Shown here piece after piece: positions 1 to 14,998 of a stretch of 64,000 bases of DNA (its first letter is position 1; each line of letters begins with the position of its first letter). The position numbers and the translations under genes were made by a program. The DNA is from Avibacterium sp. 20-132 (GTDB lineage: Bacteria > Pseudomonadota > Gammaproteobacteria > Enterobacterales > Pasteurellaceae), in the NCBI RefSeq assembly GCF_023611925.1, contig NZ_CP091456.1:124001-188000 (forward strand), written 5' to 3'. Under the pieces are notes generated by a model. The model was given only the letters and a program-made list of their open reading frames with translations, had not been told where the DNA came from and made no database searches.

Positions 1-2253
1 CTCACTAATGGCAGCTGATAATTTATCATCTAATTCATCAGTAGATAAGTTTGTAATCCAACCTACTTGTGAAGAGAATGATAATCCTCCTTGTGATGGC
101 ATTGAAATAGGATTCGCTCCACCACCAATAAAAATTTCTCCATTTCTTGTATTAATAATTAGTTTTCCAGAAACCTTATAAAGTGTTCCCTCTATAACTA
201 CATAGTGTGGAGTACCTCTATCAATAACCTCTCTTTTAGCTTTATTCTCTAACTCATCAGCCAAAGATTTTCCTTTTGCCATCTCCGCCATATCATTTAA
301 TTGCTCAGGCGTATAATGGAAAAAATTATTCTCCACCGCCCGTTTCCCAATTTCACCACCTAATGCCGCGGCATTAAGGGTGCTAACCGTGTTAGTCGCT
401 GAGCCGTTTTGTTGGGCTATTAAGCCTGACGCAAGGCTGCCAGCCAAGGCACTTAAGGCGGTAACGGTTTGGCGTTCTTCTGCGCTAAGTTGGTTCGGGT
501 TATCTTTGCCAAGAGCTTTGGTGATGGCTGGCGCGGCAAGTTCACTGGCGGAAGCGGCAACTGCGCCTGTAGCGATATTGCCCTTAGCTGCCGCCGCTTC
601 TACCGCACCCAGCACCGCGTGGGCAAGGGTGTTAGTCAGCACGTTCACCTCGCCATTGCTGTCTGTAGTGAGTTCCTTAATTTTTTCATTTAAAGTCGGC
701 GAGGCAAGGGTCGTGGCAATCTGTGCGCCGCTTTGTCCTGCCAATATCCCCCCTGCAATAGTAGTGAGGTTATCAAGGTTGCGTTTGTATTCGCCTTTCT
801 CACTCCACTTTTCTTGTCTTTCTAACGTATTAGCAAGTGCGGTGGTTTTTTCTGCAATTTTTTGTTTATCTTGCGTTGCCTGTGGTTTGCTTTGCGCTTG
901 CGCTAACTCTTGTTGCAAGCGGTCAGCTTCCAGCTGTGCGGCTTTCGCTTGATTGGCGGCATAAGTGGAGGATGCCGATTGCAACTGGCTTACTGCTTCT
1001 CTCACGACTTTTTGCTCTTTTAGCTGGGCTTGAGTATCCCTTGGTTTTTCCACGTGTGGATTGGCATTATCAAGTGCGGTGCTAAAATGCAAGGTTTTTG
1101 CCAACGCGGTGGCTGTGCTGTGGATAGGCTGGCTATCTTTATTTAAGGTAATCTTGCCCTCGGTAATGGTTGCCTTGGTGAGGCTGCTGTCACGATGGCT
1201 TTCATACATCGGTATACTTGGATTAAAACCACTTGAATTTTTCTCATCCACCCATCTGAGGTTATCGGCAGTTTGGTTGTTTGCGGGTGTCTCAACCACT
1301 TTACCTGTGCCTTTTTCCTCAAAATGCCCCTCTTGATGACTAAAGCCATAGCTTAATCCGCCACTCATTGCTTGGCTTGAGGAATGGTTTTGAAGATGCT
1401 CGACGGTCAGTTGATTGGTGGCAAGCTCACTGTTATTGGCATTTTGGCTTGCAATCGCACCGCCTTTGAGGTGAACTTGATTTGCCTCAACGTGATAGCC
1501 TCCCTCTTCCGCAAACAATCCCGATTGTTCCGTTACTTGACGATAATGTTCGCTACTACTGTCCGCATTAAAGCCGATATTGGCCCCCCACGCATTGCCA
1601 AAGCTGATACTCACACTTAAACCTGCTTGATTGCTTTTACTTTTAAGATGTTGTTCATCTTGCATACTTTCAATCTGTAACTTACCACCCACATTGGCAT
1701 CAATACGGTTGGCTTTCGCCGTTGCCCCTTTGAGTGTCAGGTCATTTTGGTTATTAAAGGTTATCTGCGCACTGTCTAAATGGCTGTTGTGGTAAGTGGT
1801 ACGTTCCGCATCCATTTTTTGGCTGCCTCCACCCACGGTGGCATATACCCCAACGCCCGTTTGTGGTCCTGCTTGGGCAAACATCCCCACTTCAACACCC
1901 ACATTTTGACCGCGCATTTTTTCTTTGCTGTGGCTTTTACCTGCTTGTAATTGCGTGTCATACGCCGTCAACGTAATATGGCTATCTGCAAGGCGTTTGC
2001 CTTGTTCATCGTGGCTAGTTAAATCACTGTGCTCAAGATGAATATTACCGCGCTTTTGCTCCCCATTGGCAAGCGTTTCCCCTGTGCCTGTAGCCGTCAA
2101 GTCAATCTGTTTGGCGTTAAACACATTACCTTGGCTAATTTGCGCTTGGCGTTCTTGTGATTGACGGCTATGTGCCACGCCCGTGCCTGACTCCACGCGA
2201 ATTAAATACGCCAAACCATCTTGCTGGGTAACCGTTTTCGCAATCTTTATCAT
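1..2253 (-). pseudogene. 5'-truncated FhaB/CdiA-like fragment with alternative C-terminus (partial, runs off window)
   Basis: An open frame runs from an in-frame ATG at 2253 to the window edge with no stop; an in-frame TGA lies a short way upstream of the ATG. From 2244 to about 324 it is nearly identical, without net indels, to the pretoxin-encoding part of the large exoprotein gene at 4445-6365. It therefore lacks the ESPR, signal peptide and TPS domain and cannot be exported by itself. It keeps the VENN motif (codons 325-336), then switches to a wholly different tail that begins FFHYTPEQLNDMAEMAKG and continues past position 1. No convincing ribosome binding site precedes the ATG. In CDI loci such displaced fragments act as silent donors of a new toxin C-terminus by recombination with the full-length gene; that role is inferred here. 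The tail is incomplete, so its activity cannot be judged. Confidence 0.85.
324..2244 (-). repeat. 1.92-kb direct repeat, copy B
   Basis: This segment matches 4445-6365 at a constant offset of 4121 bases over its whole length, with scattered substitutions and no net insertion or deletion. The repeat starts inside the exoprotein's FHA-2-like region and ends at the VENN junction, where the two copies part. The edges are abrupt: at 2244/2245 the copy switches to unrelated A+T-rich sequence. Exact identity was not computed. Confidence 0.9.
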
Positions 2254-2338
2254 TTCTGTGTTTATCTTGAACAATAGAGAAGCTCATAAAATTAAATGCA
2301 ATATTAAATATACACAATAGCAAATATAATGAGCAAAA

Positions 2339-2572
2339 CTAAAGTTTTAAATATTTCTTTGAGCTAGGAAAGTAAGACCAAATAAATATCATTAAACATA
2401 TAAAAAAATAAAAAAAAATGCTAAATAAAATATACCTATCCTGAAAAAAAAACTCTGTTTGATCTATTTGATTAGTCTTACTGTACAACCTTATCCATAC
2501 AGACACCTGAAAACCACAGATTAAATTAAATCCATAAAGAAGAGAACTTATTATTCTTTTTACAAAAGACAT
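2339..2572 (-). CDS. Small two-helix membrane protein, candidate immunity protein (third pair)
   Basis: This 77-residue ORF overlaps the stop of the preceding 217-residue ORF by one base (TAATG), so translation is probably coupled. Two hydrophobic segments can be seen, roughly residues 8-28 and 45-66, with a short polar stretch between and a lysine-rich end. I do not recognise the family, and it is not obviously similar to the two other small membrane ORFs at 3215-3415 and 3640-3855 except in layout. Its position directly after a toxin-like module makes a membrane-located immunity protein the best reading. It is A+T-rich like its neighbours, which suggests acquisition by transfer. Confidence 0.5.
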   Translation of the reverse strand: MSFVKRIISSLLYGFNLICGFQVSVWIRLYSKTNQIDQTEFFFQDRYILFSIFFYFFICLMIFIWSYFPSSKKYLKL

Positions 2573-3225
2573 TACTTCACCTCTTCTTTTTTATTATATT
2601 GATTAATTAACTCTCCAGAAAATATACTTAAAGTCGTTCCTAGAGTTGAACTCTTGATATTATATGGAAGTAATTCATTAGTCAGATTTTCCCCTGTAGT
2701 ACTCTTTAGATAATTATATTGATCACTAAAATATGAATTACTATTAGATAATCTTGAATCAACTACTGTTGACATTGAGCCTAATACAAATGAAGTCCCC
2801 ATTGGGGTATAAATTAAATAAGGTGTGGTTAGACCTGATTTAATAGCTTCTTTATAATTAATTGTACCTGTATTGATATACTGAGCCCCCATATTCGCAC
2901 TCATACCTATCATCGTTCCAGTTACATACTGTTTTGGTGTGATTTTTGAAATACTATCAATACTATTACCAATATTTCTAGTAACCGCATTAGCATAAGG
3001 ATTGTAAGAATGATAAATACCTTCTGAGAGCATTTTATCTATAAAACCAACAGTAGGTTTTTCAAGACGAATTGCAGTTGAAACTATTTTATTCCCTCCT
3101 ACCTTGGTTACCAATTCAACTGTATTTACAACTTTTGGTATGTTAGAAATATATCCTAAAGAAGCCAACTCCAATCCCTCTTTCGTTGATTCTGCTACTC
3201 TCCCATTAAATGATTCACTTTTCAT
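2572..3225 (-). CDS. Orphan FhaB/CdiA C-terminal module (candidate toxin)
   Basis: This 217-residue ORF has no signal peptide and no VENN motif. Its ATG lies inside the last codons of the upstream small ORF (11-base overlap). Its second half resembles the C-terminus of the large exoprotein: both have a glycine/alanine-rich stretch of the form AN-x2-AQ-x-I followed by an acidic/aromatic spot, and both end in a GE-x-I block and a Lys/Glu-rich tail (here KKEEVK, there NKEEK). I infer a displaced C-terminal toxin module of the same family, with the 77-residue membrane protein downstream as its partner. I cannot name an enzymatic fold; the hydrophobic, small-residue-rich composition fits a membrane-acting protein better than a nuclease. 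An inert remnant is the main alternative. Confidence 0.5.
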   Translation of the reverse strand: MKSESFNGRVAESTKEGLELASLGYISNIPKVVNTVELVTKVGGNKIVSTAIRLEKPTVGFIDKMLSEGIYHSYNPYANAVTRNIGNSIDSISKITPKQYVTGTMIGMSANMGAQYINTGTINYKEAIKSGLTTPYLIYTPMGTSFVLGSMSTVVDSRLSNSNSYFSDQYNYLKSTTGENLTNELLPYNIKSSTLGTTLSIFSGELINQYNKKEEVK

Positions 3226-3415
3226 ACCAATTTTTTAAAATCCAATCTGCAATTATTACAACTATTGATACTTTTAAAGCATAAATGTTACTTTCAAAGA
3301 AAGCTTCCCCTATATAATTATAATTAATAGAAGATCTATGTTGAACTAAAAAAGCTAACAACGAAAGATTAGCTAAAGAAAAACAAAGTAAAATAAGAAT
3401 TAATATTCTTTTCAT
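3215..3415 (-). CDS. Small two-helix membrane protein, candidate immunity protein (second pair)
   Basis: This 66-residue ORF starts one base beyond the stop of the preceding short ORF and overlaps the next gene by 11 bases. It has two hydrophobic segments, about residues 4-22 and 45-60. The second half is visibly related to the 71-residue ORF at 3640-3855: both have an aromatic pair, E-[ST], then ALK or SLK, an isoleucine/valine run and a Trp near the end. This similarity suggests two immunity proteins of one family guarding against related C-terminal modules. Function is inferred from context only. Confidence 0.5.
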   Translation of the reverse strand: MKRILILILLCFSLANLSLLAFLVQHRSSINYNYIGEAFFESNIYALKVSIVVIIADWILKNWYEK

Positions 3416-3416
3416 A

Positions 3417-3659
3417 CTATTTACTCTCCTTATGTTCTTTCTTATCTTCGGAGATCAATTTATAGGACATAGGTATTTTTTGTATAATTTCTCCAGTAAG
3501 TGCACTAACTACAGGATTAGAAATCTTAGACCCTACATATGTAGCGCCACTGGGCAATGCTGCATAACTTAACCCATCTCCTCCATTCGCAATCCCTGTC
3601 GCCATACCAACACCAGACAAAGTAAAATTAAATATAATGTTATTTATCTTTCTTATCAT
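3417..3659 (-). CDS. Displaced fragment of an exoprotein C-terminal module
   Basis: This 80-residue ORF repeats the last part of the large exoprotein. After about 15 unrelated residues it carries GVGMATGIANGGDGLS, then a YVGSKI block and a GEIIQKIP block, each nearly identical to the exoprotein tail, and it ends in a Lys/Glu-rich stretch. The start codon lies inside the 3' end of the upstream small ORF (20-base overlap). The N-terminal two thirds of the module are missing, so I read it as the remnant of an older C-terminus left by recombination, still paired with its own small membrane ORF. Whether it is translated is unknown. Confidence 0.6.
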   Translation of the reverse strand: MIRKINNIIFNFTLSGVGMATGIANGGDGLSYAALPSGATYVGSKISNPVVSALTGEIIQKIPMSYKLISEDKKEHKESK

Positions 3660-3855
3660 TCAATTCATAAATATCCCATAACCAAGAAAAGATAATTGCA
3701 ATAACTGAAAATTTCAAAGATAGAATGAGTGTTTCATAATATGCATCTATAACAAAATCTAAATTATCAAATGAATAGTACCTAAAAATATTAACTGTGC
3801 AGCCTATGAATCCAAAACATAAAATAGCTATTATTGTATAAACTGCTTTCTTCAT
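3640..3855 (-). CDS. Small two-helix membrane protein, candidate immunity protein of the full-length exoprotein
   Basis: This 71-residue ORF starts four bases inside the end of the large exoprotein gene (ATGA overlap), the usual place for a cdiI-type immunity gene. Two hydrophobic segments are visible, about residues 4-24 and 43-60, joined by a polar loop rich in Asp and Tyr; a charged tail follows. It is related to the 66-residue ORF two genes downstream. A membrane immunity protein would suit a toxin acting on the inner membrane. No known family is recognised; the assignment rests on position, size, overlap and the repeated pairing in this locus. Confidence 0.6.
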   Translation of the reverse strand: MKKAVYTIIAILCFGFIGCTVNIFRYYSFDNLDFVIDAYYETLILSLKFSVIAIIFSWLWDIYELNDKKDK

Positions 3856-6800
3856 TTTTCCTCCTTATTTTCAATCTTTATAATATTTGGGAGCTTTTGT
3901 ATTGTTTCACCAACCATGATAGATAAAAGAGGATTAGGTATTTTTGATCCCACATATGTTGCTCCACCAGATAAAGCGGCATCACTTAAACCATCACCGC
4001 CATTCGCAATCCCTGTCGCCATACCAACACCAGCGTTAAATCGCATTGCTTCCGAAGTTGTTTTAAACAATGGGGAAGCACTTCCAGAAGCAACAGCCCC
4101 AGCAAATTCATAAAAGTTAAACTCTTGTCCACTGATTTTTTGTGCAGCCAAATTAGCACCTCCACTAATTGCGGCTCGAGATAAAAACGTATATGCCTTT
4201 GTCCCAGCAACTATTTCAGGTGCAAGAAGCATTGGCGCAACTTGTAATACCAATTCCCGACTAATATAAATCGCTTTTCCTGTTTTGCTTAAAACATAGT
4301 AAGTCCCTTCTGCTGTACGATAAATCGCTGGATGTTCTTTTTTAATATATTCTTGAACACCTTGCTCTGTACTTTCTTTGGCTACATTTCCTTCAGCAGC
4401 AGCTTGCAAATCAGCTGGTGGAGTCATTAAAACCTCACCAAAGAAATTATTCTCCACCGCCCGTTTCCCAATTTCACCACCTAATGCAGCGGCATTAAGG
4501 GTGCTAACCGTGTTAGTCGCTGAGCCGTTTTGTTGGGCGGTTAAGCCTGAAGCCAGGCTGCCAGCCAAGGCGCTTAAGGCGGTAACGGTTTGGCGTTCTT
4601 CGGTGCTGAGCTGGTTCGGGTTATCTTTGCCAAAGGCTTTGGTGATGGCTGGCGCGGCAAGTTCACTGGCGGAAGCGGCAACTGCACCAGCGGTGATATT
4701 GCCCTTAGCAGCCGCTGCTTCTACCGCACCCAGCACCGCGTGGGCAAGGGTGTTGGTCAGCACGTTCACCTCGCCATTGCTGTCTGTAGTGAGTTCCTTA
4801 ATTTTTTCATTTAAAGTCGGCGAGGCAAGGGTCGTGGCAATCTGTGCGCCGCTTTGTCCTGCCAATATCCCACCTGCAATAGTGGTGAGGTTATCAAGGT
4901 TGCGTTTGTATTCGCCTTTCTCACTCCACTTTTCTTGTCTTTCTAACGTATTAGCAAGTGCGGTGGTTTTTTCTGCAATTTTTTGTTTATCTTGCGTTGC
5001 CTGCGGTTTGCTTTGCGCTTGCGCTAACTCTTGTTGCAAGCGGTCAGCTTCCAGCTGTGCGGCTTTCGCTTGATTGGCGGCATAAGTGGAGGATGCCGAT
5101 TGCAACTGGCTTACCGCTTCTCTCACAACTTTTTGCTCTTTTAGCTGGGCTTGGGTATCCCTTGGTTTTTCCACGTGTGGATTGGCATTATCAAGTGCGG
5201 TGCTAAAATGCAAGGTTTTTGCCAACGCGGTGGCTGTGCTGTGGATAGGCTGGCTATCTTTATTTAAGGTAATCTTGCCCTCGGTAATGGTTGCCTTGGT
5301 GAGGCTGCTGTCACGATGGCTTTCATACATCGGCATACTTGGGTTAAAACCACTTGAATTTTTCTCGTCCACCCATCTGAGGTTATCGGCAGTTTGGTTG
5401 TTTGCGGGTGTCTCAACCACTTTGCCTGTGCCTTTTTCTTCATAATGCCCCTCTTGATGACTAAAGCCATAGCTTAATCCGCCACTCATTGCTTGGCTTG
5501 AGGAATGGTTTTGAAGATGCTCGACGGTCAGTTGATTAGTCGCAAGCTCACTGTTATTGGCATTTTGGCTTGCAATCGCACCGCCTTTGAGGTGAACTTG
5601 ATTTGCCTCAACGTGATAGCCTCCCTCTTCCGCAAATAATCCCGATTGTTCTGTTACTTGACGATAATGTTCGCTGCCACTGTCCGCATTAAAGCCGATA
5701 TTGCCACCCCACGCATTGCCAAAGCTGATACTCACACTTAAACCAGCTTGATTACTTTTACTTTTAAGGTGTTGTTCATCTTGCATACTTTCAATCTGTA
5801 ACTTACCACCCACATTGGCATCAATACGGTTGGCTTTCGCCGTTGCCCCTTTGAGTGTCAGGTCATTTTGGTTATTAAAGGTTATCTGCGCACTGTCTAA
5901 ATGGCTGTTGTGATACATTGTGCGTTCCGCATCCCTTTTTTGGCTGCCTCCACCCACAGTGGCATATACCCCAACGCCCGTTTGTGGTCCTGCTTGGGCA
6001 AACATCCCCACTTCAACACCCACATTTTGACCGCGCATTTTTTCTTTGCTATGGCTTTTACCTGCTTGTAATTGCGTGTCATACGCCGTCAACGTAATAT
6101 GGCTATCTGCAAGGCGTTTGCCTTGTTCATCGCGGCTAGTTAAATCACTGTGCTCAAGATGAATATTACCGCGCTTTTGCTCCCCATTGGCAAGCGTTTC
6201 CCCTGTGCCTGTAGCCGTCAAGTCAATCTGTTTGGCGTTAAACACATTACCTTGACTAATTTGCGCTTGGCGTTCTTGTGATTGACGGCTATGTGCCACG
6301 CCCGTGCCTGATTCTACGCGAATTAAATAGGCTAAACCGTCTTGCTGGCTAACCGTTTTCGCAATAGTGTCTGCCACCTGATAACCTTGCGCGGCAAGGG
6401 TAACAGCATTGGCGGCATTTACACGGTCTGACGCATTTTTATTTTTCACCGTGCGCTCCACGGTTTGGATTAAATCAATAATCGGCGATTTAACACGGGT
6501 AAATTGTCCGATTTTTAAATCACTTTGACTTTGAGATTGATTGTCGGTATTTAACGCGGCATCCGCATAAATGTTTTGGGCAGTGATTCGTAGCTTATCT
6601 TTAGCTAGCACCGCACTGCTGGTTTGGTGATAATCCTTACCTGCGTCAATCTCAACATTGCCTTGCAAACTCAGGATACGGCTGCCTGTGTGCGTGGTAT
6701 TGTCGCCTGCTTGATTATGCCGTTCACGGTGATAACCAAAAAATCGCTCTGTATCCGAGGTGGCGACTTCACCAACTGAATGGCTCATTGCTTTTTGGCT

Positions 6801-9800
6801 TTGGTTATAAAGGGTTTTCGCCGTATCTAATACCACATTGCCTTTGGCTGTAAGGTGGGTATTGCCCTCATTAATCAGCGTTAAGCCTTTGCCTGTAATA
6901 TCGCCACCTTGCGCAATAACACGGGTCTCTGCCCCTGTGGTTATTAACGTCCCTCGCTCTTCTCGGCGGGTTTGATTGCCATCTTCATGGCTAACGCCCA
7001 TCCCAGCAATATATTTATTTAAGCCATTTAACTCAAAGCCTTTCGCACGCTTTTCTGCATTTTGCGAATAAATGTCTGTTGCCACATCAAAATTCACTGA
7101 ACCACTGGCAATAAATTCCGCTCCTTTTTCTGCATTAATTTGACTGCCTTGCGTGGTGATATCCCCTGCGCTCGCAATAACCTGCAACTTGCCTTCTGTA
7201 TTAATGGACGCGCTTTTCGCTAATTTTTGATACGTATTTTTATATGCCTCATTTTGTTGATGTTTGAGATAAGGGCTTACACCACGCCCCACCATTTCAG
7301 CGGTGTCTGTAATGGATTCGGCGCGAGAAATCTCATCACCAACAAAGGTATCTGCCATACCAGAATCTTTACGGCTTTGGTATTTATTACGCCCCACGGT
7401 TAATGGGTCATAAACCATATTAATCCCCACACCTGACATTTTACGAACGTATTCTGATTCACCATAATGCTGCTCATCTGCCGCATTAAGCGCCACTTGT
7501 TTGGATTGTAGGTGAGTGTCTTTACCGCTTTGAATTTCTACCGCCGTGGCAGTCAAATGTTCCCCTGCATTAAGTATCACATCACCTTGTTGAGTTTTAA
7601 TACTTGCCCCTTTTACTGTTTCATCATAGCTCGTATTCTGCTGACGCACTTTTTCTTTGTGGTAGCCCACCGCCGCAATGCCTCCCTCAAGGCTGCTTGT
7701 AATGCCTGATTTTTTGTGTTTTTCCCATTGGGTATGGGCATAAGTATCTGTAACGGCATTTGCATTCAGTTCATTACCAGCACGGGCAATGACAGATTGA
7801 TCAGCATTTATTTGTGTACCTTCAAATGCTATATCGTGATTGGCACTTAGCTCAATTTGTCCAGCTGTTAAATGCGTAACTTTGTGTGTATTTGCGAGAC
7901 GATGGGAATAATTCTCAGAAGCTCTTGACGACAAAACACCTCGCCGCTGAACTTTATGATATTCCTCAACTTCTCGTGCTGTGCCTACACTGCTTAGCAC
8001 AATGTTATTTTCTGCCAATGCCATAAGCTTTGCCTCGCTTTCTAGCTTAGCACCTTCTGCGGTAATATCTCGCCCACTTAACAATACATTTCCTTTGCCT
8101 TTTATCGTGCTTACCACAGCATCTTGCACTTTTTCATTACGGTAATGATTGCCTTTGCCCATTTTTTCTTCAAAACCAACAGAAAGTGCGGTCAAATTTA
8201 GTCCATTTTTTGCCTTAACAATCGTATTACCTTGTCCCTCATTAATAATATCTGCCCCTTGACTCAAGATATTATTGGCATTTAAGTGCAATACCCCTTC
8301 TTTGTCTTTGACATAAAGTAAGGCTTTGCGAGCGAGGGTAGTTTCATTGCGTTTGAAATGAGATAGCCCCACTTCTGTGGTATGGGCAGTGCTTTGGTGG
8401 GTAAAATCCCCGCCTACATCAATGAATAGCCCTTGTTCGGCTTCGACTTTCCCACCAATATTCTCAACATTACCGGTGGTTTTAATGCCAACTTTTCCTC
8501 CTAGGATATTTCCTTCGTTGCGTAATGTGTCTGTGTTTAACAAGGCGATTTTTCGCCCTGCAATCGTACCAAGGTTGTTTAAATGTGAAGTGCGTAAATC
8601 AACCACATTCGCAGAGATTAATGCCCCCTCACCATTTAAATCACCTTTTTTCGCCACCACGTAAACGCGTGGTGCAATCACATCAACCTTTTTACCGCTT
8701 GGTAAGGTGACGGTTTGCGGTTCAAACCAAACAATATCCGAGGTGAGTGCAGCCACTTGATCGGCACTCAAGGCAATACCCGGGGTTAAATTAAATTGCT
8801 TAGCAAAAGAAATCCCTTTATCCATCAAGGCTTTATATTGATTTTCAAGATCTTGCTGATTATCCAAGAACATTCGTCCTGTAAGTTGGTTAATTTGATC
8901 TCGAACCATACGCTGTTCATAATAACCATCACCTAAGCGTTTCAAGATATTTTGCGGTTCACTGCGTAGAGCATTGAACATATAATCTGAGCTAAGCCAT
9001 TTTTTGCGATTGGTAAATTGCGGATCGGTTTCAATTAATACCTTTTGTCCCTCTGGATTGATCCGATAAAGGCTTGAGGTTGGCAAACTGGTGTTAGCTT
9101 GAATGTGCCTAATTTCATTCTCATTTTGTTGCAGCAAGCTATGATCAGCGGCATTACCCACTTGTTGATGAGAAGTAAGTGCGACATTATTTAATGTGAC
9201 ATTGGCATTTTCTGCTTCTGGGATGAATGTGGTATGAGATTCCACGCTAGCTTGATTTAATGCCAGTGGGGTTTCTGTACGTCTCATATGGTCATAACGT
9301 CCCGTCCATTCTCGCTGATGATAGCGTCTAAATCCACCACGCCAACGAGAGTATGTCCATTCTTGATTGCCAATATCATCAATTTGGGTAATCCCAATTT
9401 CTTCAATATTGTTAATTGGGTTGGTGGTATCATTAGTGGTTTTAATGACTCCCGCTGCGATGATTTGACTACGATTATTTTCAACCTCACCGGAAAAACC
9501 AATATCGCCCCCACTGAGAATTTTTCCTGGGTGAGTTTCTTTCACTTTAGTTTGGCGTTCAATGCGTCGTGTTACATAAACATCCCAGAAATCTGCAAAC
9601 TCTCGTCCAAGTAAACTTGCGTTATGTTTTTGGATTGCTGTATCAAGTTGTTCAAATTTTTCCGCATTCGCATTAACCCAATCAAGATAAGGTTTCATCT
9701 CGGCAGAATAAGCAATAAGCTTGGCTTCATATTCCGCCATCGCTTTACGGTATTCCACCATTTTTTCTTCATATTCTTTGAGTTCCTGCTCATACCTATT

Positions 9801-12800
9801 GCGATTAAAAAAATGTCTGCGTGGTTTAGTCGGCTCAACAGGCTCTTTTAACGTTGGATCAAGCCCTGATAAATCAGGCAATTCAGGGGCCGGCGTTTCT
9901 GGTGGGGTGATATTTAACGCAGCCCAAACAGGATCTTGATTGGTATAAATTGCTTGCGGAACAGGAGCGCACCCTGTACGTGTCTGCTCATTCGCACAGG
10001 CTTCTTCATTAGGAGCTGGGAGTATATAACCGGCAATACCACCATCTTTCGGACGTGATGGAATCGCTTGATTTTTATAAACCACTCTCCCTGCTCGGCT
10101 AAAAGAACGCCAACGGAGTTGATCGAAATTAATCCGTTCCCCAATTTGAGGATCATCAACAATTAAGTAATGTTCATTAACCGCTTGGTTGCTGACTTCT
10201 TCAAGGTTGGTGCGTAAGCGAGCATTCTCATTTTTCAATTGTTTTACACCAAACTGAATACCATTTCCTTCAATTAATCCGCCGCGGTTGATTAAGGTTT
10301 CGCTTAATCCTTGAGCATAATGATTGGCGTCAAGGTTTTTTCCGAAAATAATTTGTCCTTCTGATGTCAATGTGCCACCAATGCCATTAAACGCCCAATC
10401 TTGCGTAAAGGTATTTTTTGTATTTTCAATCACTGGCGCAGCAATGTCTAAACGTTGAGTAGCAGCAATCACCGCAGATTTTATCGAGCCATCCGCTTGT
10501 AATTCATCACTATTTATGATTTTGTTTGCTTGCAGTGCGGTGTGACCACCATAGATACGCCCTGTACCAATATTACTCAGGGTTTGCCCTGCTTTAATAA
10601 TATTTTCTTCGCTGCCTTTAATTAGACCACGATTGGTTAAATTTTCCGAGACAGTCAGTGCGGTAGATTTTCCTTGAATTTCTGCGTGATTTTGATTATC
10701 AATATTTGCCGCTTGAATGGCGGTATTTCCCTCAGAATAAAGCCCTGCTTGATTGATGAGATTACCCAATGTTGAAAGGATGAGGCTTGAACGCCCGATA
10801 ATATCGTTTTCAGCGTGAAAATCTTGTTTTAGTCGGAGAGAGGTATGGTCTGCCTCAATATCCCCATCACCAGATAAGCCATTTGCCTCAATAATTAAAT
10901 TTGTCGAAGCCGAGATCACACCTTCCGCATTTTCGATTCCTGCATTTGTCCCGTTAATGGTTAAATTGCCCAGTGAGAGTATTTCGCCCTGTTGATTGTA
11001 TAATTGCTGAGCGACATTTAAGGTCGTATTTTCAACACTATAAATATCTCCTTGTTGATTATTAAGATTTTGAGCATTCAGTTCAATCTTTTTCGCAATC
11101 ATACCTTGTTGCGGTGTGGCGTTGTCCACTGGTTTGGTATTGGTGTTATTGAAAGATGGTGCGGTAAGGGTTAAGGTATTTTTCGCCTGAATTAACGACC
11201 CTGTTTCCGCTATTTTTTGATTTTGAATTGATGTTGTTAGGGTTAATGCCGCGTTATTCTCCGCACTCAAAATACCTGCTCGATTATCTAATTGTTGTGC
11301 GTTGATTTGTAATGAGCCTGCACTGAATAACCGCCCATATTGATTATTCAATGCTGCTGATGGTTGCTCAAGGATAAAATCCCCACCAATTAACATTAAT
11401 CCCGATTGATTGTTTAAGCCTTTATTAAGCGCTAAATTCACTGCACGATCGCTTAAGCTCGCCCAATGTCCTTGCTGATTATTAATTTGTATAGCTCGCG
11501 TATCAATCCAATTCGCTTTAACATCAGCTTGCTGGGTAGAAAGCAGATCAGGCGTTCGCCATTGCAGATCGCCTGCGGCGGTGAGGGTTGCTGAATCGGC
11601 CTTAATGCCTTGCTGTTTAGCATTGATGCGAAGCGTATACCCTGCGGTTTGGCTGTGACTAATATCTACTTCACTGGCATCAATTTGCATCTTGCCCGCA
11701 GCGAGATTTTGCCCTTGCAGTGTGGTTTTTTCGCGACTGGTAATGTGAATCGAGCTGCCTTGTTCAGAAGGCGTTTCAAGGGTTCGGACTTCTTTACCAT
11801 TTTGATCTGAAATCATTACTCCCGCAGCAATGACCGCCCCTTTACTTGCATTGACACGCTCAGCGTTATAGCGAATATGCCCTTTGCTCAGGGTTTCTCC
11901 TCGCTGTGTTATCGCCTTTTTCGCAGTGGCTTGAATATTACCTTGACGAGCAACCACAGTACCCATTTGTTGGATATTGGATTGGCTGTTAAAGCGAATT
12001 TCCCCTTGAAGGTTTTCAATTTTTCCTTGGTTTTCAAAATCATTGGCAGTAGTTAGGCTGATCGTTTGGTTTGCATTGAGCCTTCCCATATTAACAATCC
12101 GCCCTTGACTATCAATTTGCACTTCCCCTACAGAAGCCCCAATATGCCCTGCATTTCGCACACCAAGCCCTGTACCGTTATCCACTAATTGAATACGTTC
12201 CGCATACATTCCGCCAAGCTGCCCCACATCGACACGATATTCTTGCCCTTCATTTAAAGTGCGGTCATTTTTTTCATTATTTTTATTGCCGACATAAACG
12301 ACGGCATCATTCGTACGGTTTACCTTATTCTTGCCAGTGGTAACTTTAAGTTGTTTTGCCCAAACGCCCCCATCAAGCTGCACTTTTTCAGCGATAATGT
12401 CGGTATAATCCGCTTGGCGATTATCTAACCCTTTGCCTGTTACGCTAACTTTTCCGCCTTTGACTTGGTATCCTTTTAATTCGCCATTGGCAATATCAGG
12501 CTTACCCGTTGTCAAGGTTGAACGCCCCGCATTAATCACGCCACAGCCATCACAATGAATCCCTGAAGGGTTGGCGATCACCACATCGGCTTTTTTACCT
12601 GCAACTTCAATATAACCTTTGAGATGACTAGGATTGTTGGAATTTACTTCATTAAGAATAACTTTAGCTTCCCCCGTGACTAAATTAGGGTTGCCTTGTA
12701 CCCAGCCTGCAAGTTGGGTTTGCGTTGCTTTGCGCGCATTATTCAGTACAGCCCCTTTCTCGGCGACATCAAATTGAGAATAAGTATTACGCGAAACGCC

Positions 12801-13142
12801 TGCTTGGCTTGGCGTTTGAATATTAACTTGCGGTAAACCATTGGCTGTTTTCAAAATGGTTGCTTGTTGATTAGCCGGTGCTGATTTATCTGCACGAATT
12901 ACCATTTCATTAGCAAACGCCGGGGTTGAAAAATAGACATACCCCAACGCCACCATCATACTAAATTGCACAGGTTTCATCACCCAACTAAACTGAGAAC
13001 AAAGTGCGGTGAGATTTTGCGATGTTTTTTCAGCTCCCATATTTTCGCTTGTCGCTTTTCCCTGTGTTCTAGCTAACTCTGATACGACAATAAGCTGATT
13101 AAGCGTTTTGCTAAAAATAACGCGATAAGATTGTTTATTCAT
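3852..13142 (-). CDS. fhaB: Filamentous haemagglutinin / CdiA-like two-partner secretion exoprotein
   Basis: This 3096-residue protein starts with an extended signal peptide region (SYRVIFSKTLN near residue 6) and a hydrophobic core ending in AFA at residue 77. The TPS domain follows, with NPNL at 151-154, NPSGI at 191-195 and the CDGCG pair of cysteines at 197-200. A long beta-helical repeat region comes next, interrupted at about residues 1080-1190 by a Pro/Glu/Tyr-rich, partly coiled-coil block. A second repeat region and an Ala-rich pretoxin domain lead to VENN at 2896-2899 and a variable tail of about 197 residues. The TpsB partner lies 92 bp upstream, so both are probably one operon. 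The protein is expected on the cell surface, serving adhesion, contact-dependent inhibition, or both. The tail is rich in Gly, Ala and hydrophobic residues and ends in NKEEK; I cannot assign it to a known toxin class. The downstream overlap with a small membrane ORF supports a CDI role. Confidence 0.9.
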   Translation of the reverse strand: MNKQSYRVIFSKTLNQLIVVSELARTQGKATSENMGAEKTSQNLTALCSQFSWVMKPVQFSMMVALGYVYFSTPAFANEMVIRADKSAPANQQATILKTANGLPQVNIQTPSQAGVSRNTYSQFDVAEKGAVLNNARKATQTQLAGWVQGNPNLVTGEAKVILNEVNSNNPSHLKGYIEVAGKKADVVIANPSGIHCDGCGVINAGRSTLTTGKPDIANGELKGYQVKGGKVSVTGKGLDNRQADYTDIIAEKVQLDGGVWAKQLKVTTGKNKVNRTNDAVVYVGNKNNEKNDRTLNEGQEYRVDVGQLGGMYAERIQLVDNGTGLGVRNAGHIGASVGEVQIDSQGRIVNMGRLNANQTISLTTANDFENQGKIENLQGEIRFNSQSNIQQMGTVVARQGNIQATAKKAITQRGETLSKGHIRYNAERVNASKGAVIAAGVMISDQNGKEVRTLETPSEQGSSIHITSREKTTLQGQNLAAGKMQIDASEVDISHSQTAGYTLRINAKQQGIKADSATLTAAGDLQWRTPDLLSTQQADVKANWIDTRAIQINNQQGHWASLSDRAVNLALNKGLNNQSGLMLIGGDFILEQPSAALNNQYGRLFSAGSLQINAQQLDNRAGILSAENNAALTLTTSIQNQKIAETGSLIQAKNTLTLTAPSFNNTNTKPVDNATPQQGMIAKKIELNAQNLNNQQGDIYSVENTTLNVAQQLYNQQGEILSLGNLTINGTNAGIENAEGVISASTNLIIEANGLSGDGDIEADHTSLRLKQDFHAENDIIGRSSLILSTLGNLINQAGLYSEGNTAIQAANIDNQNHAEIQGKSTALTVSENLTNRGLIKGSEENIIKAGQTLSNIGTGRIYGGHTALQANKIINSDELQADGSIKSAVIAATQRLDIAAPVIENTKNTFTQDWAFNGIGGTLTSEGQIIFGKNLDANHYAQGLSETLINRGGLIEGNGIQFGVKQLKNENARLRTNLEEVSNQAVNEHYLIVDDPQIGERINFDQLRWRSFSRAGRVVYKNQAIPSRPKDGGIAGYILPAPNEEACANEQTRTGCAPVPQAIYTNQDPVWAALNITPPETPAPELPDLSGLDPTLKEPVEPTKPRRHFFNRNRYEQELKEYEEKMVEYRKAMAEYEAKLIAYSAEMKPYLDWVNANAEKFEQLDTAIQKHNASLLGREFADFWDVYVTRRIERQTKVKETHPGKILSGGDIGFSGEVENNRSQIIAAGVIKTTNDTTNPINNIEEIGITQIDDIGNQEWTYSRWRGGFRRYHQREWTGRYDHMRRTETPLALNQASVESHTTFIPEAENANVTLNNVALTSHQQVGNAADHSLLQQNENEIRHIQANTSLPTSSLYRINPEGQKVLIETDPQFTNRKKWLSSDYMFNALRSEPQNILKRLGDGYYEQRMVRDQINQLTGRMFLDNQQDLENQYKALMDKGISFAKQFNLTPGIALSADQVAALTSDIVWFEPQTVTLPSGKKVDVIAPRVYVVAKKGDLNGEGALISANVVDLRTSHLNNLGTIAGRKIALLNTDTLRNEGNILGGKVGIKTTGNVENIGGKVEAEQGLFIDVGGDFTHQSTAHTTEVGLSHFKRNETTLARKALLYVKDKEGVLHLNANNILSQGADIINEGQGNTIVKAKNGLNLTALSVGFEEKMGKGNHYRNEKVQDAVVSTIKGKGNVLLSGRDITAEGAKLESEAKLMALAENNIVLSSVGTAREVEEYHKVQRRGVLSSRASENYSHRLANTHKVTHLTAGQIELSANHDIAFEGTQINADQSVIARAGNELNANAVTDTYAHTQWEKHKKSGITSSLEGGIAAVGYHKEKVRQQNTSYDETVKGASIKTQQGDVILNAGEHLTATAVEIQSGKDTHLQSKQVALNAADEQHYGESEYVRKMSGVGINMVYDPLTVGRNKYQSRKDSGMADTFVGDEISRAESITDTAEMVGRGVSPYLKHQQNEAYKNTYQKLAKSASINTEGKLQVIASAGDITTQGSQINAEKGAEFIASGSVNFDVATDIYSQNAEKRAKGFELNGLNKYIAGMGVSHEDGNQTRREERGTLITTGAETRVIAQGGDITGKGLTLINEGNTHLTAKGNVVLDTAKTLYNQSQKAMSHSVGEVATSDTERFFGYHRERHNQAGDNTTHTGSRILSLQGNVEIDAGKDYHQTSSAVLAKDKLRITAQNIYADAALNTDNQSQSQSDLKIGQFTRVKSPIIDLIQTVERTVKNKNASDRVNAANAVTLAAQGYQVADTIAKTVSQQDGLAYLIRVESGTGVAHSRQSQERQAQISQGNVFNAKQIDLTATGTGETLANGEQKRGNIHLEHSDLTSRDEQGKRLADSHITLTAYDTQLQAGKSHSKEKMRGQNVGVEVGMFAQAGPQTGVGVYATVGGGSQKRDAERTMYHNSHLDSAQITFNNQNDLTLKGATAKANRIDANVGGKLQIESMQDEQHLKSKSNQAGLSVSISFGNAWGGNIGFNADSGSEHYRQVTEQSGLFAEEGGYHVEANQVHLKGGAIASQNANNSELATNQLTVEHLQNHSSSQAMSGGLSYGFSHQEGHYEEKGTGKVVETPANNQTADNLRWVDEKNSSGFNPSMPMYESHRDSSLTKATITEGKITLNKDSQPIHSTATALAKTLHFSTALDNANPHVEKPRDTQAQLKEQKVVREAVSQLQSASSTYAANQAKAAQLEADRLQQELAQAQSKPQATQDKQKIAEKTTALANTLERQEKWSEKGEYKRNLDNLTTIAGGILAGQSGAQIATTLASPTLNEKIKELTTDSNGEVNVLTNTLAHAVLGAVEAAAAKGNITAGAVAASASELAAPAITKAFGKDNPNQLSTEERQTVTALSALAGSLASGLTAQQNGSATNTVSTLNAAALGGEIGKRAVENNFFGEVLMTPPADLQAAAEGNVAKESTEQGVQEYIKKEHPAIYRTAEGTYYVLSKTGKAIYISRELVLQVAPMLLAPEIVAGTKAYTFLSRAAISGGANLAAQKISGQEFNFYEFAGAVASGSASPLFKTTSEAMRFNAGVGMATGIANGGDGLSDAALSGGATYVGSKIPNPLLSIMVGETIQKLPNIIKIENKEEK
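4445..6365 (-). repeat. 1.92-kb direct repeat, copy A (inside the full-length exoprotein gene)
   Basis: This copy encodes about residues 2260-2900 of the exoprotein and matches 324-2244 at a constant offset of 4121. Recombination between the copies would delete about 4.1 kb and fuse the full-length gene to the alternative C-terminus of the truncated copy, because both copies stand in the same orientation and reading frame. Confidence 0.9.
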
Positions 13143-13234: not shown

Positions 13235-14998
13235 TTAAAAACGGTAATTTAAAGTAAAACCTGTTGTTAAGTGGCTGGTTCTGAACCCTTCAGGTTTTCT
13301 AATGGGGATGCCAATAAAATAATCATAGTTTAATCCCCATAAACGACCTCGTAAACCCAGTACACCGCCAGTGAGGCTATCTCCCAGTTGCAGTTCTTCT
13401 TGGGAGGATCTAACAATACCTCGATCAATACCGAGATATAATTCTTGTCCTTTATTGGCAATGTTCCAAGCAAGTTCATTACGCCATACCCAACCACGCT
13501 CGCCAGAAAGAGATAACTCACCATCAAATCCTCGTACAGTATAACGCCCACCAATGCTTAATTTATCCTGTTGAACCAGTGGTGTTTGATTCCATTGAGC
13601 ATTCCAATGGGTATTGAAGCGAAAAGGTTGAGAACCTAAGGTAAAGGGGTAATTTAGGTCAATAGAGGCGGTGATGATCTGCATTCTGGAGGTGCCTTCA
13701 TCAAATTTTTCCTCAGGCGCTGGCAAGGCACGATTAGCGCCTGTACCGCGTTTATAATTAGCCGAAAGTTGTAATGTTGCATTACCGATATAATGTGTGT
13801 GATTAATGCCCATTTCCCAACCTGCGGTACGGCGGCGTTGTACCTGTATTTCTGTATCGTTAATATAGTTGGAGGATTGTCTTGTCCATAACGAAACATT
13901 GAGATAAGTTTTAGAATCGCTATTGCGCCATAGCAAACGACTTAAATTAGCGTGTATTTGACGGCTTTCCCCCGAATATTCATAAGATTCAAAAGCCCCA
14001 GCAATAGTTTGATGATATTGGTATCTTGAGCCAGAAAGGCTGAGCAAATAATTTTTCCACGGAATCGAGTAATAAAGACTGTAATTTTTACTACCATAAT
14101 CTCCTTCCACATCATCACTATGGCGCTTAAAACTTTTTGTTGCACTGAAATAAAACATATCATTCAGTGTGGTCACATTATCCCAAGAAAAGGTGGCGGA
14201 ACCCTGTAAACGCCCTGTGGCTTTTGTCCCTGAATCGTCTACCCCTAAGGTAAAATGAAAAGGGAATTTTTGTTTATAGGCAATGATAATATCCGATTCA
14301 CCGATATTTTCTGTCGCTTGTAATTCAATATTCGCATCAGCACTTGGCACACGTTTGAAGTTTTCTAATCCCTGTTCAATATCTCGCACATTCAAAATAT
14401 CCCCTTGTTTTATTGGCATCGCAAACCAAAGCGTACCTCTCGTAGCAAAGGGAATTGCACTTTGATCTTGTAGCTGGATATGTCCTACTTTACCCGGTAT
14501 GAGGGTAAGAATTAACATCTCAGAACGCAAATCTTGTGGCTCAACAACTACTCGAGTAGTAATATAGCCAAAATCAATTAAGCGATTTTGAATACGGCGT
14601 AAAAGTGTATTAATCCCTTGTGAGCCAATGCAAGCAGGTAGGGAAAAATCCCCCTCTGTATAAATCGCATTTAATGCCCAAGAAAATTGACTTGGTTGAA
14701 TAAATTCAGGGTTTTCTTCGTTAGCGTTAATATCAGTTAGCACAATTTGCTTGATAGGAAAACATTGCGCTTCACTCTGTGGAAAACCTTGTTTTTCAAT
14801 TCTGTCGCTTTGTAAACGAATATGAGGCGGCTGAATTTGTTGAGACTGAATTGCGGAATTAAGGTTATTTTGTTGCTGTTGTTGCGTTGCATTAATTTGT
14901 TTTTCCTCAGGTGTTTCCACACGTTCCGTGACAGCCCTGCAAAGTAGAGGAAAAAAACAATAAGTCGCTAAAAAAGTAAAATAAAAGAATCTAAACAT
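13235..14998 (-). CDS. fhaC: Two-partner secretion outer-membrane transporter (FhaC/ShlB/HecB family)
   Basis: This 587-residue protein has a hydrophobic signal peptide (about residues 1-22), then a Gln/Asn-rich linker. Two POTRA-like domains span roughly residues 70-230; the first carries the cysteine pair (CFPI and ACIG) common in this family. A 16-stranded barrel fills the rest. The conserved VRGF motif of the barrel loop is at 488-491, and the chain ends in a C-terminal aromatic residue (YRF), as expected for BAM substrates. It recognises the TPS domain of the adjacent exoprotein and passes it across the outer membrane. It lies upstream of the exoprotein gene and is probably cotranscribed with it. 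Confidence 0.93.
   Translation of the reverse strand: MFRFFYFTFLATYCFFPLLCRAVTERVETPEEKQINATQQQQQNNLNSAIQSQQIQPPHIRLQSDRIEKQGFPQSEAQCFPIKQIVLTDINANEENPEFIQPSQFSWALNAIYTEGDFSLPACIGSQGINTLLRRIQNRLIDFGYITTRVVVEPQDLRSEMLILTLIPGKVGHIQLQDQSAIPFATRGTLWFAMPIKQGDILNVRDIEQGLENFKRVPSADANIELQATENIGESDIIIAYKQKFPFHFTLGVDDSGTKATGRLQGSATFSWDNVTTLNDMFYFSATKSFKRHSDDVEGDYGSKNYSLYYSIPWKNYLLSLSGSRYQYHQTIAGAFESYEYSGESRQIHANLSRLLWRNSDSKTYLNVSLWTRQSSNYINDTEIQVQRRRTAGWEMGINHTHYIGNATLQLSANYKRGTGANRALPAPEEKFDEGTSRMQIITASIDLNYPFTLGSQPFRFNTHWNAQWNQTPLVQQDKLSIGGRYTVRGFDGELSLSGERGWVWRNELAWNIANKGQELYLGIDRGIVRSSQEELQLGDSLTGGVLGLRGRLWGLNYDYFIGIPIRKPEGFRTSHLTTGFTLNYRF

What the first reader, a model, noticed from the sequence alone, without database searches (positions are those of the whole stretch)
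1..13142. CDI-like exoprotein locus with a stack of alternative C-terminal/immunity modules
After the full-length exoprotein there follow, on the same strand and with overlaps of 1-20 bases or a 1-bp gap, membrane ORF (71 aa), C-terminal fragment (80 aa), membrane ORF (66 aa), orphan C-terminal module (217 aa), membrane ORF (77 aa) and then a truncated exoprotein copy with yet another C-terminus. Arrays of displaced toxin/immunity pairs are known for CDI and Rhs loci, but these modules do not look like a toxin class I can name, so both the pairing and the activity may be undescribed.
Basis: partly seen in the sequence, partly recalled or inferred. Interest (0 to 1): 0.75.

Follow-up and report, generated by a model that had tools for sequence, protein, structure and literature searches.

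The report
Stacked CDI ionophore toxin-immunity cassettes
This is a contact-dependent bacterial weapon locus whose toxin tip probably punctures rival cells' inner membranes, followed by a pile of older, partly cut toxin tips with their antidote genes; the unusual part is that a swap can happen inside the toxin domain, exchanging just the last helices together with much of the antidote gene.

Summary
The ORF stack is real and as described. It heads a cdiBAI array that runs about 12 kb beyond the window (six PT-VENN modules in all). The main tail resembles the alpha-helical CDI ionophores described in E. coli in 2024: short entry region, five predicted helices (modest confidence), and a 71-aa two-membrane-helix protein whose start overlaps cdiA's stop. 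Relatives in the same order occur in other Pasteurellaceae. The downstream pieces are displaced remnants cut at different depths: a toxin domain without entry domain (217 aa) and only the last helices (80 aa). Their immunity genes carry clear ribosome-binding sites; the toxin pieces only weak ones. Such orphan arrays are known. What appears new is the exchange unit: two copies of the 217-aa toxin in this genome differ at 2 of 913 positions outside, but 128 of 348 inside, one tract covering the toxin's last ~50 codons and most of the immunity gene. A pair in Actinobacillus shows the same. So the toxin's end is swapped together with its antidote inside the toxin domain, not at VENN. Activity is untested, and the 217-aa toxin's class rests on weak evidence.

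The parts
13235..14998 (-). cdiB: ShlB/FhaC-type outer-membrane transporter, 587 aa
   Evidence: Pfam ShlB E 9.4e-104, POTRA_2, POTRA_3
3852..13142 (-). cdiA: full-length exoprotein, 3096 aa
   Evidence: Pfam ESPR, TPS, Fil_haemagg_2, PT-VENN
4440..4619 (-). PT-VENN pre-toxin domain of cdiA (residues 2842-2901)
4260..4439 (-). putative entry region of the CdiA-CT (tail residues 1-60: one long helix and three short strands in the model)
   Evidence: AF2 model; found with a different toxin domain in G130
3855..4259 (-). putative ionophore domain of the CdiA-CT: five predicted helices (tail residues 61-195)
   Evidence: AF2 model mean pLDDT 65.9, pTM 0.42
3855..4031 (-). tail residues 137-195 (end of helix 3, helices 4-5): the stretch that differs between otherwise similar relatives
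3640..3855 (-). putative cdiI of the main toxin, 71 aa, two hydrophobic helices, strong Shine-Dalgarno
   Evidence: 78% identical relative in Avibacterium paragallinarum
3417..3659 (-). displaced toxin end, 80 aa: only the last ~65 residues are related to the CdiA tail; weak or no Shine-Dalgarno
   Evidence: 83% DNA identity of 3513-3616 to 3930-4033
3215..3415 (-). orphan immunity gene of the 80-aa piece, 66 aa, two hydrophobic helices
2572..3225 (-). displaced second-type toxin domain without its entry domain, 217 aa; weak or no Shine-Dalgarno
   Evidence: full-length version in the same genome (L012 8285-9820); P0002 86% identical, P0003-P0005 47%
2339..2572 (-). orphan immunity gene of the 217-aa toxin, 77 aa, two hydrophobic helices
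2380..2728 (-). exchanged tract: differs from the second copy in L012 at 128 of 348 positions, against 2 of 913 outside
1..2274 (-). truncated cdiA copy with VENN and a different C-terminus; its end lies 165 bases beyond the window

Best explanation
The locus is a complete contact-dependent growth inhibition system (cdiB, cdiA, cdiI) with a stack of displaced toxin ends and antidote genes. The main CdiA tail most likely acts as an alpha-helical ionophore: after cleavage at VENN its entry region uses an inner-membrane protein of the target, the five-helix domain inserts and collapses the membrane potential, and the 71-aa membrane protein blocks it in kin cells by packing against its helices. 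The downstream pieces are earlier tips pushed aside by new ones. The 80-aa piece keeps only the last helices and the 217-aa piece lacks an entry domain, so neither is likely to be a deliverable toxin, but their antidote genes look translatable and probably protect against former-self and relatives' toxins. New tips arise by recombination at three depths: at or upstream of VENN, at the entry/toxin-domain junction, and inside the toxin domain, where the last helices travel with most of the immunity gene. Shown: anatomy, homology, the recombinant tracts. Inferred: depolarising activity, immunity function, expression of the orphans.
For: CdiA/CdiB domains. Six PT-VENN modules in one locus of this genome. 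Five helices in the tail domain. The three small window proteins each have two hydrophobic helices, and similar small proteins follow ionophore-type toxin ends in Chelonobacter oris, Actinobacillus sp. GY-402, Conservatibacter flavescens and Cricetibacter osteomyelitidis (names by matching contigs). Recombinant tract in this genome: 128/348 mismatches inside, 2/913 outside, 0 of 20 shuffles reach it; upstream toxin sequence has 0 synonymous differences at 113.5 sites, the toxin part of the tract about 77%. Tract in GY-402: 139/324 inside, 10/433 outside, starting within one residue of where the 80-aa piece's homology starts. Close relatives can share helices 1-3 but not the end: this tail vs A. 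avium 52/57 against 31/59; A. paragallinarum vs A. avium 54/57 against 34/59. Toxin-end and immunity identities covary over 11 hand-picked pairs, rho 0.653, 4 of 5000 permutations. Shine-Dalgarno energy <= -5 kcal/mol in 13 of 19 chosen immunity ORFs, 5 of 20 chosen toxin pieces.
Against: No activity, immunity or expression data. The AF2 model is of modest confidence (pTM 0.42); Foldseek against PDB gave 0 of 423 matches at E <= 0.001. No direct sequence comparison with E. coli CT-EC93 was made. The GxxxGxxxG run of the tail (residues 139-147) lies at the end of helix 3 of the model, not in helix 4 as reported for E. coli. The 217-aa toxin type links only weakly to the main tail type by profile (8.9%) and its model failed (pLDDT 33). 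Of the 15 protein pairs that are at least 80% alike in helices 1-3, 9 fall below 70% after residue 137 but 6 do not (two of these 6 are the same protein twice). Six of 19 immunity starts lack a strong Shine-Dalgarno and 5 of 20 toxin pieces have one. The absence of terminator-like sites at 2000-4300 is weak evidence, 1.1 being expected by chance.
Confidence: 0.75

Rival explanations
1. Classic CDI orphan array only: whole toxin/immunity modules were displaced at VENN and then decayed by deletion; the short pieces are decay products with no significance of their own. (Not exclusive of the main reading.)
For: Four further modules in L012 are classic VENN-to-immunity orphans; the last immunity gene of the array is degenerate; orphan arrays are common, and Poole et al. 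mention cdiA-CT fragments without VENN in two species (PMC3150448, passages read). The Cricetibacter toxin end that looked like a 63-aa piece in fact continues upstream in the same frame, so the start at that residue was seen only in the window's 80-aa piece.
Against: Decay does not produce two copies that are near-identical on both sides of a divergent tract covering toxin end plus immunity gene.
Confidence: 0.3
2. The toxin ends diverged in place by strong diversifying selection, without exchange.
For: Halvorsen et al. report intra-group polymorphism concentrated in helices 1, 4 and 5, which are predicted to contact CdiI (PMC11630599).
Against: Synonymous sites jump from 0 of 113.5 to about 77% different at one boundary and identity returns to 100% after the tract. 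Toxin-end identity in the mosaic A-type pairs (30/61 to 36/61) is about that between genera (mostly 0.4-0.6, maximum 0.74).
Confidence: 0.07
3. The tail is not an ionophore but another toxin, for instance an enzyme, and the small membrane proteins block entry or act as lipoproteins.
For: No Pfam or NCBIfam model covers the tail; UniRef calls the closest relative of the 71-aa protein a lipoprotein.
Against: Five-helix prediction, two-helix membrane immunity proteins without a lipobox-like cysteine shared by the relatives (by eye), entry parts recombined with different toxin domains as in the ionophore group.
Confidence: 0.15
4. The small AT-rich ORFs are chance frames, not genes.
For: GC 0.29 around them; hydrophobic frames arise easily in AT-rich DNA.
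Against: Relatives at the same position, dN 0.09 vs dS 0.43 between two of those relatives, Shine-Dalgarno sites.
Confidence: 0.03

Closest known systems
Type 10 alpha-helical CDI ionophores of E. coli (CT-EC93 and groups 1-6; Halvorsen et al. 2024, PMC11630599)
   Same: Tail of about 200 residues after VENN; variable entry region plus five-helix domain; small hydrophobic two-helix CdiI directly downstream; variation at the toxin end; entry domains modular.
   Different: Not compared directly with E. coli sequences here; GxxxGxxxG at the end of helix 3 rather than in helix 4 of the model; CdiI 66-77 aa against 72-100; exchange boundary inside the toxin domain with both flanks preserved, not reported in the sections I read.
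Orphan cdiA-CT/cdiI arrays (Poole et al. 2011, PMC3150448) and meningococcal tpsC/IORF cassettes (Arenas et al. 2013, PMC3848433)
   Same: cdiBAI followed by toxin pieces lacking translation starts and immunity genes able to be expressed; recombination proposed to swap tips; uptake sequences near the meningococcal cassettes.
   Different: In the passages I read the exchange units start at or upstream of VENN; VENN-less fragments are mentioned for two species but without cdiI. Here two displaced pieces with their immunity genes start inside the CT, and the exchanged tract lies inside the toxin domain.
Tandem immunity-gene recombination in type VII systems (esaG, tipC; Garrett et al. 2022, PMC9484751)
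   Same: Homology blocks used for exchange between tandem immunity paralogues.
   Different: Concerns immunity genes alone; for tsaI, the immunity genes of a membrane depolariser, they found little recombination.

Membership tests
CDI (CdiB/CdiA/CdiI two-partner system) | ShlB-type transporter next to a large exoprotein with ESPR, TPS and FHA repeats | tested here: met
CDI (CdiB/CdiA/CdiI two-partner system) | Pre-toxin VENN domain followed by a variable C-terminus and an adjacent small gene | tested here: met
   PT-VENN at residues 2842-2901; 71-aa ORF overlapping the stop
CDI (CdiB/CdiA/CdiI two-partner system) | Contact-dependent growth inhibition neutralised by the adjacent gene | not testable with these tools
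   needs competition assays
Orphan cdiA-CT/cdiI array | Truncated cdiA copies with VENN, followed by putative immunity genes | tested here: met
   six PT-VENN matches in one locus, ORFs; the last immunity gene is degenerate
Orphan cdiA-CT/cdiI array | Orphan toxin pieces lack translation signals while immunity genes have them | tested here: met
   Window: the three immunity genes score -12.2, -9.7, -7.1 kcal/mol, the two toxin pieces -4.0 and -3.1; 39 chosen ORFs: 13/19 vs 5/20 at <= -5
Type 10 alpha-helical CDI ionophore | Entry region plus C-terminal five-helix bundle | tested here: met
   five helices in the main tail's model, modest confidence, bundle packing not examined; not obtained for the 217-aa toxin
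Type 10 alpha-helical CDI ionophore | Glycine zipper GxxxGxxxG in helix 4 | tested here: inconclusive
   Main tail has GMATGIANG at residues 139-147, at the end of helix 3 in the model; a related D-type toxin has GAITGTVGG at the helix-4 place
Type 10 alpha-helical CDI ionophore | CdiI a small two-helix membrane hairpin | tested here: met
   hydropathy of the 71-, 66- and 77-aa proteins
Type 10 alpha-helical CDI ionophore | Sequence homology to CT-EC93 | not tested
   No E. coli ionophore sequence was fetched; profile links to D-type (92.8%) and to a toxin of another family of the order (86.5%, 38 columns)
Type 10 alpha-helical CDI ionophore | Depolarises target cells | not testable with these tools
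   needs dye assay
Ntox25 beta-barrel ionophore (type 14) | PF15530 domain / beta-barrel | tested here: not met
   no such Pfam hit for the main tail at E <= 1, helical model

The most novel reading that the evidence does not exclude
The last helices of the ionophore and the larger part of the antidote gene form one exchangeable immunity-type cassette, flanked by conserved sequence on both sides. By swapping only this cassette a lineage changes who is immune to it while keeping the entry domain, hence the target receptor, and the stacked orphan antidotes preserve protection against its former selves; the array is a layered record of past identities.
Probability: 0.45. Interest if true: 0.65.

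Novelty: new variant of a known kind. Interest (0 to 1): 0.5.

Why it matters
How a toxin and its antidote can change specificity together is an open question for polymorphic toxins, since a change in one alone is suicidal or useless. A tract that moves the end of the toxin and most of the immunity gene in one step, with the rest of the toxin untouched, would be a direct answer for ionophores and could be checked in strain collections. It would also extend the helical CDI ionophore group to Pasteurellaceae; the word Pasteurella does not occur in the main text of the 2024 paper.

Tried and rejected
Single-sequence scan of genome contigs with the tail found no relative; the alignment scan found five loci. 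tblastn of plasmids: no match. Profile search of PDB sequences: two matches at E 0.075 and 0.95, not credible. Foldseek of the tail model against PDB: 0 of 423 matches at E <= 0.001, uninformative. AF2 of the 217-aa ORF failed (pLDDT 33.2). PADLOC: 0 hits for 5 proteins. Pfam and NCBIfam gave no toxin model for the tails. Order-wide profile search: 8 of 394 genomes, four of them outside the family at E 0.001-0.01; of these four, L044 is a transport operon and thus a false match, L046 looks like a CDI toxin end, L045 and L047 were not examined. I first thought that several genera share a displaced piece starting exactly at GVGMATG; the Cricetibacter frame continues upstream, so I dropped that claim. 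Profile link of main-tail and 217-type domains: 8.9% probability, so I do not claim their homology. Two start offsets were wrong and were redone (medians, counts and P unchanged). One search stopped with an error after its identity table; the test was rerun with corrected rows. The ORFs (39) and gene pairs (11) are hand-picked, not a complete census; for instance L054 and L057 were left out.

Full report
Observation. The exoprotein carries ESPR, TPS, FHA-2 and PT-VENN domains and follows a ShlB-type transporter, so this is a complete cdiBA pair. The window lies at 124001-188000 of a 2,585,160-base single-contig genome. The genome holds six PT-VENN matches, all in this locus, from 114.4 to 128.6 kb. 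Reading the neighbouring stretch L012 shows the rest of the array: the truncated copy that runs off the window ends 165 bases beyond it and is followed by a 133-aa gene and a 102-aa gene, then VENN modules of 474, 778, 660 and 511 aa with putative immunity genes of 188, 224 and 274 aa and one degenerate gene, and a last cdiA fragment without a toxin, down to genome position 112098, about 12 kb beyond the window.

Host. No name is given for the genome. The nearest relatives of the main tail and its immunity protein are from Avibacterium paragallinarum (87% and 78%) and A. avium (tail 81%), so it is probably an Avibacterium-like member of Pasteurellaceae. The main tail (A type) has matches in 8 of 140 family genomes, own genome included, and in none of the 6 congeners; in 6 of the 8 the match covers the toxin domain, in 2 (G130, G031) only the entry part. 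The profile of the 217-aa toxin (B type, entry part included) matches 16 of 140; only 5 of these (G000, G060, G079, G130, G139) reach beyond profile position 200, the others, including the congener G025, match mainly the entry part.

What the main tail is. AlphaFold2 with 14 sequences gives one long helix and three short strands (residues 1-60), then five helices at 61-103, 109-124, 128-145, 150-165 and 170-194, mean pLDDT 65.9, pTM 0.42. The adjacent 71-aa protein has two hydrophobic helices and a strong Shine-Dalgarno site. Halvorsen et al. 2024 (PMC11630599; abstract, introduction, part 1 of 4 of the results, the discussion and some passages read) describe such an arrangement for E. coli ionophores: entry domain, five-helix ionophore domain, CdiI of 72-100 residues forming a two-helix hairpin, polymorphism in helices 1, 4 and 5, which are predicted to contact CdiI. 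They report a glycine zipper in helix 4 as the only shared sequence element; the tail here has GxxxGxxxG at residues 139-147, but at the end of helix 3 of the model, so I count that feature as inconclusive. I did not compare with an E. coli sequence. A related toxin type (D) found in the congener G025 and in Actinobacillus GY-402 aligns with the main tail over the toxin domain (hhalign 92.8%, 112 columns) and has GAITGTVGG at the place of helix 4. A toxin end of another family of the order aligns over 38 columns (86.5%); a small membrane ORF follows within about 160 bases.

Modularity. Three kinds of chimera are visible: P0018 of Gallibacterium has the B-type entry part with an A-type toxin domain; G130 (L034) has an A-type entry part with a B-type domain; the congener G025 (L057) has the B-type entry part with a D-type domain, with DNA identity dropping at the junction. 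The 217-aa ORF starts close to that junction: its homology to the full-length copy in L012 begins just behind the 66-aa gene. So it is a toxin domain that lost its entry domain. The 80-aa ORF is homologous to cdiA only from about tail residue 136-137 on (83% over 104 bases).

Recombination inside the toxin domain. The 217-aa ORF and its full-length copy in L012 are an informative pair: outside one tract they differ at 2 of 913 aligned positions, inside it at 128 of 348 (0 of 20 shuffles reach the score). The tract runs from window 2728 (ORF residue 166) to 2380 (residue 64-65 of the 77-aa immunity protein). Upstream of it there are no synonymous differences at 113.5 sites; within the toxin part of the tract about 77% of synonymous sites differ. 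Exchange of an older, diverged segment is the only explanation I find for this. An A-type pair in the genome taken to be Actinobacillus GY-402 (G045; the P0008 protein of GY-402 matches one copy) shows the same: 139/324 inside, 10/433 outside, from the residue equivalent to tail residue 137 to about the start of the second membrane helix of the immunity protein. A D-type pair in the same locus is about 95% identical upstream and diverges over the last 40-45 codons, without a conserved downstream flank. At protein level this tail and that of A. avium share 52/57 residues in helices 1-3 but 31/59 after residue 137; A. paragallinarum vs A. avium 54/57 and 34/59; by contrast this tail vs A. paragallinarum is 52/57 and 48/59, and their immunity proteins are 78% identical (that P0011 and P0007 lie on one contig is inferred from equal contig length). 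Of all 15 pairs at least 80% alike in helices 1-3, 9 fall below 70% afterwards and 6 do not. Across 11 hand-picked toxin-end/immunity pairs the identities covary (rho 0.653, 4 of 5000 permutations); shared ancestry contributes to that figure.

How it probably works. Shown: anatomy, homologues, recombinant tracts, Shine-Dalgarno sites. Inferred: CdiB exports CdiA; the tail is released at VENN in the target, inserts as an ionophore with help of an inner-membrane receptor, and the 71-aa protein neutralises it. The two displaced toxin pieces of the window have at most weak Shine-Dalgarno sites (-4.0 and -3.1 kcal/mol) and the three immunity genes clear ones (-7.1 to -12.2); over 39 chosen ORFs 13 of 19 immunity genes against 5 of 20 toxin pieces reach -5 (one-sided P 0.0014). 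No terminator-like site was found at 2000-4300, where 1.1 would be expected by chance. Poole et al. 2011 (PMC3150448, passages read) report for E. coli EC93 that such an orphan immunity gene is co-transcribed and made while the orphan toxin was not detected; I expect the same here.

Known and new. Orphan arrays, displaced tips, uptake sequences and immunity collecting are described (PMC3150448; PMC3848433, passages; PMC9086364, passages), also for Pasteurellaceae (PMC6211672 and PMC4943601, passages). Exchange within a CDI ionophore domain was not found in print: searches (open-licence PMC papers only, listings seen), and 'recombination' occurs once, in another context, in PMC11630599. Garrett et al. 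2022 (PMC9484751, abstract and one section) describe recombination within tandem immunity genes of type VII systems, the nearest parallel. I therefore rate it a new variant of a known kind.

Limits. No function is tested. The B-type assignment to ionophores rests on position, small two-helix immunity and chimeras; its profile link to the A type is weak (8.9%) and its model failed. The surveys used chosen loci and one genome per species.

Noticed in passing
L031 3119-3652 (minus), same contig as L038 (Conservatibacter flavescens): Ionophore C-terminus and its two-helix immunity protein read as one open frame without a stop between them: a natural toxin-immunity fusion or a lost stop codon, at a contig end.
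   Followed up: partly
window 1-2274 continuing in L012 18837-19745 and 18434-18835: The truncated cdiA copy's glycine-rich C-terminus matches no Pfam toxin family, nor does the 133-aa one-helix immunity candidate above cut-off; by eye, similar pairs recur beside ionophore arrays in L029, L030, L032 and L033.
   Followed up: no
L012 8060-8290: The immunity gene after the last full VENN module is degenerate although its toxin frame is open.
   Followed up: partly
window 835, 1072, 4956, 5193; L012 12362, 12599, 14998, 15235: Hin-type DNA uptake sequences (AAGTGCGGT; motif recalled) sit twice upstream of VENN in four of the six cdiA copies; overall 39 in the 64-kb window, so not a clear enrichment. 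Transformation could feed the array.
   Followed up: partly
L012 18138-18446: A gene for a DUF7683 protein lies between two CDI modules without a toxin partner of its own.
   Followed up: no
L012 10844-12826 and L029 5708-6835: By eye a toxin tip and its 274/282-aa immunity gene are shared between this array and one in Actinobacillus sp. GY-402, so modules seem to travel across genera.
   Followed up: no
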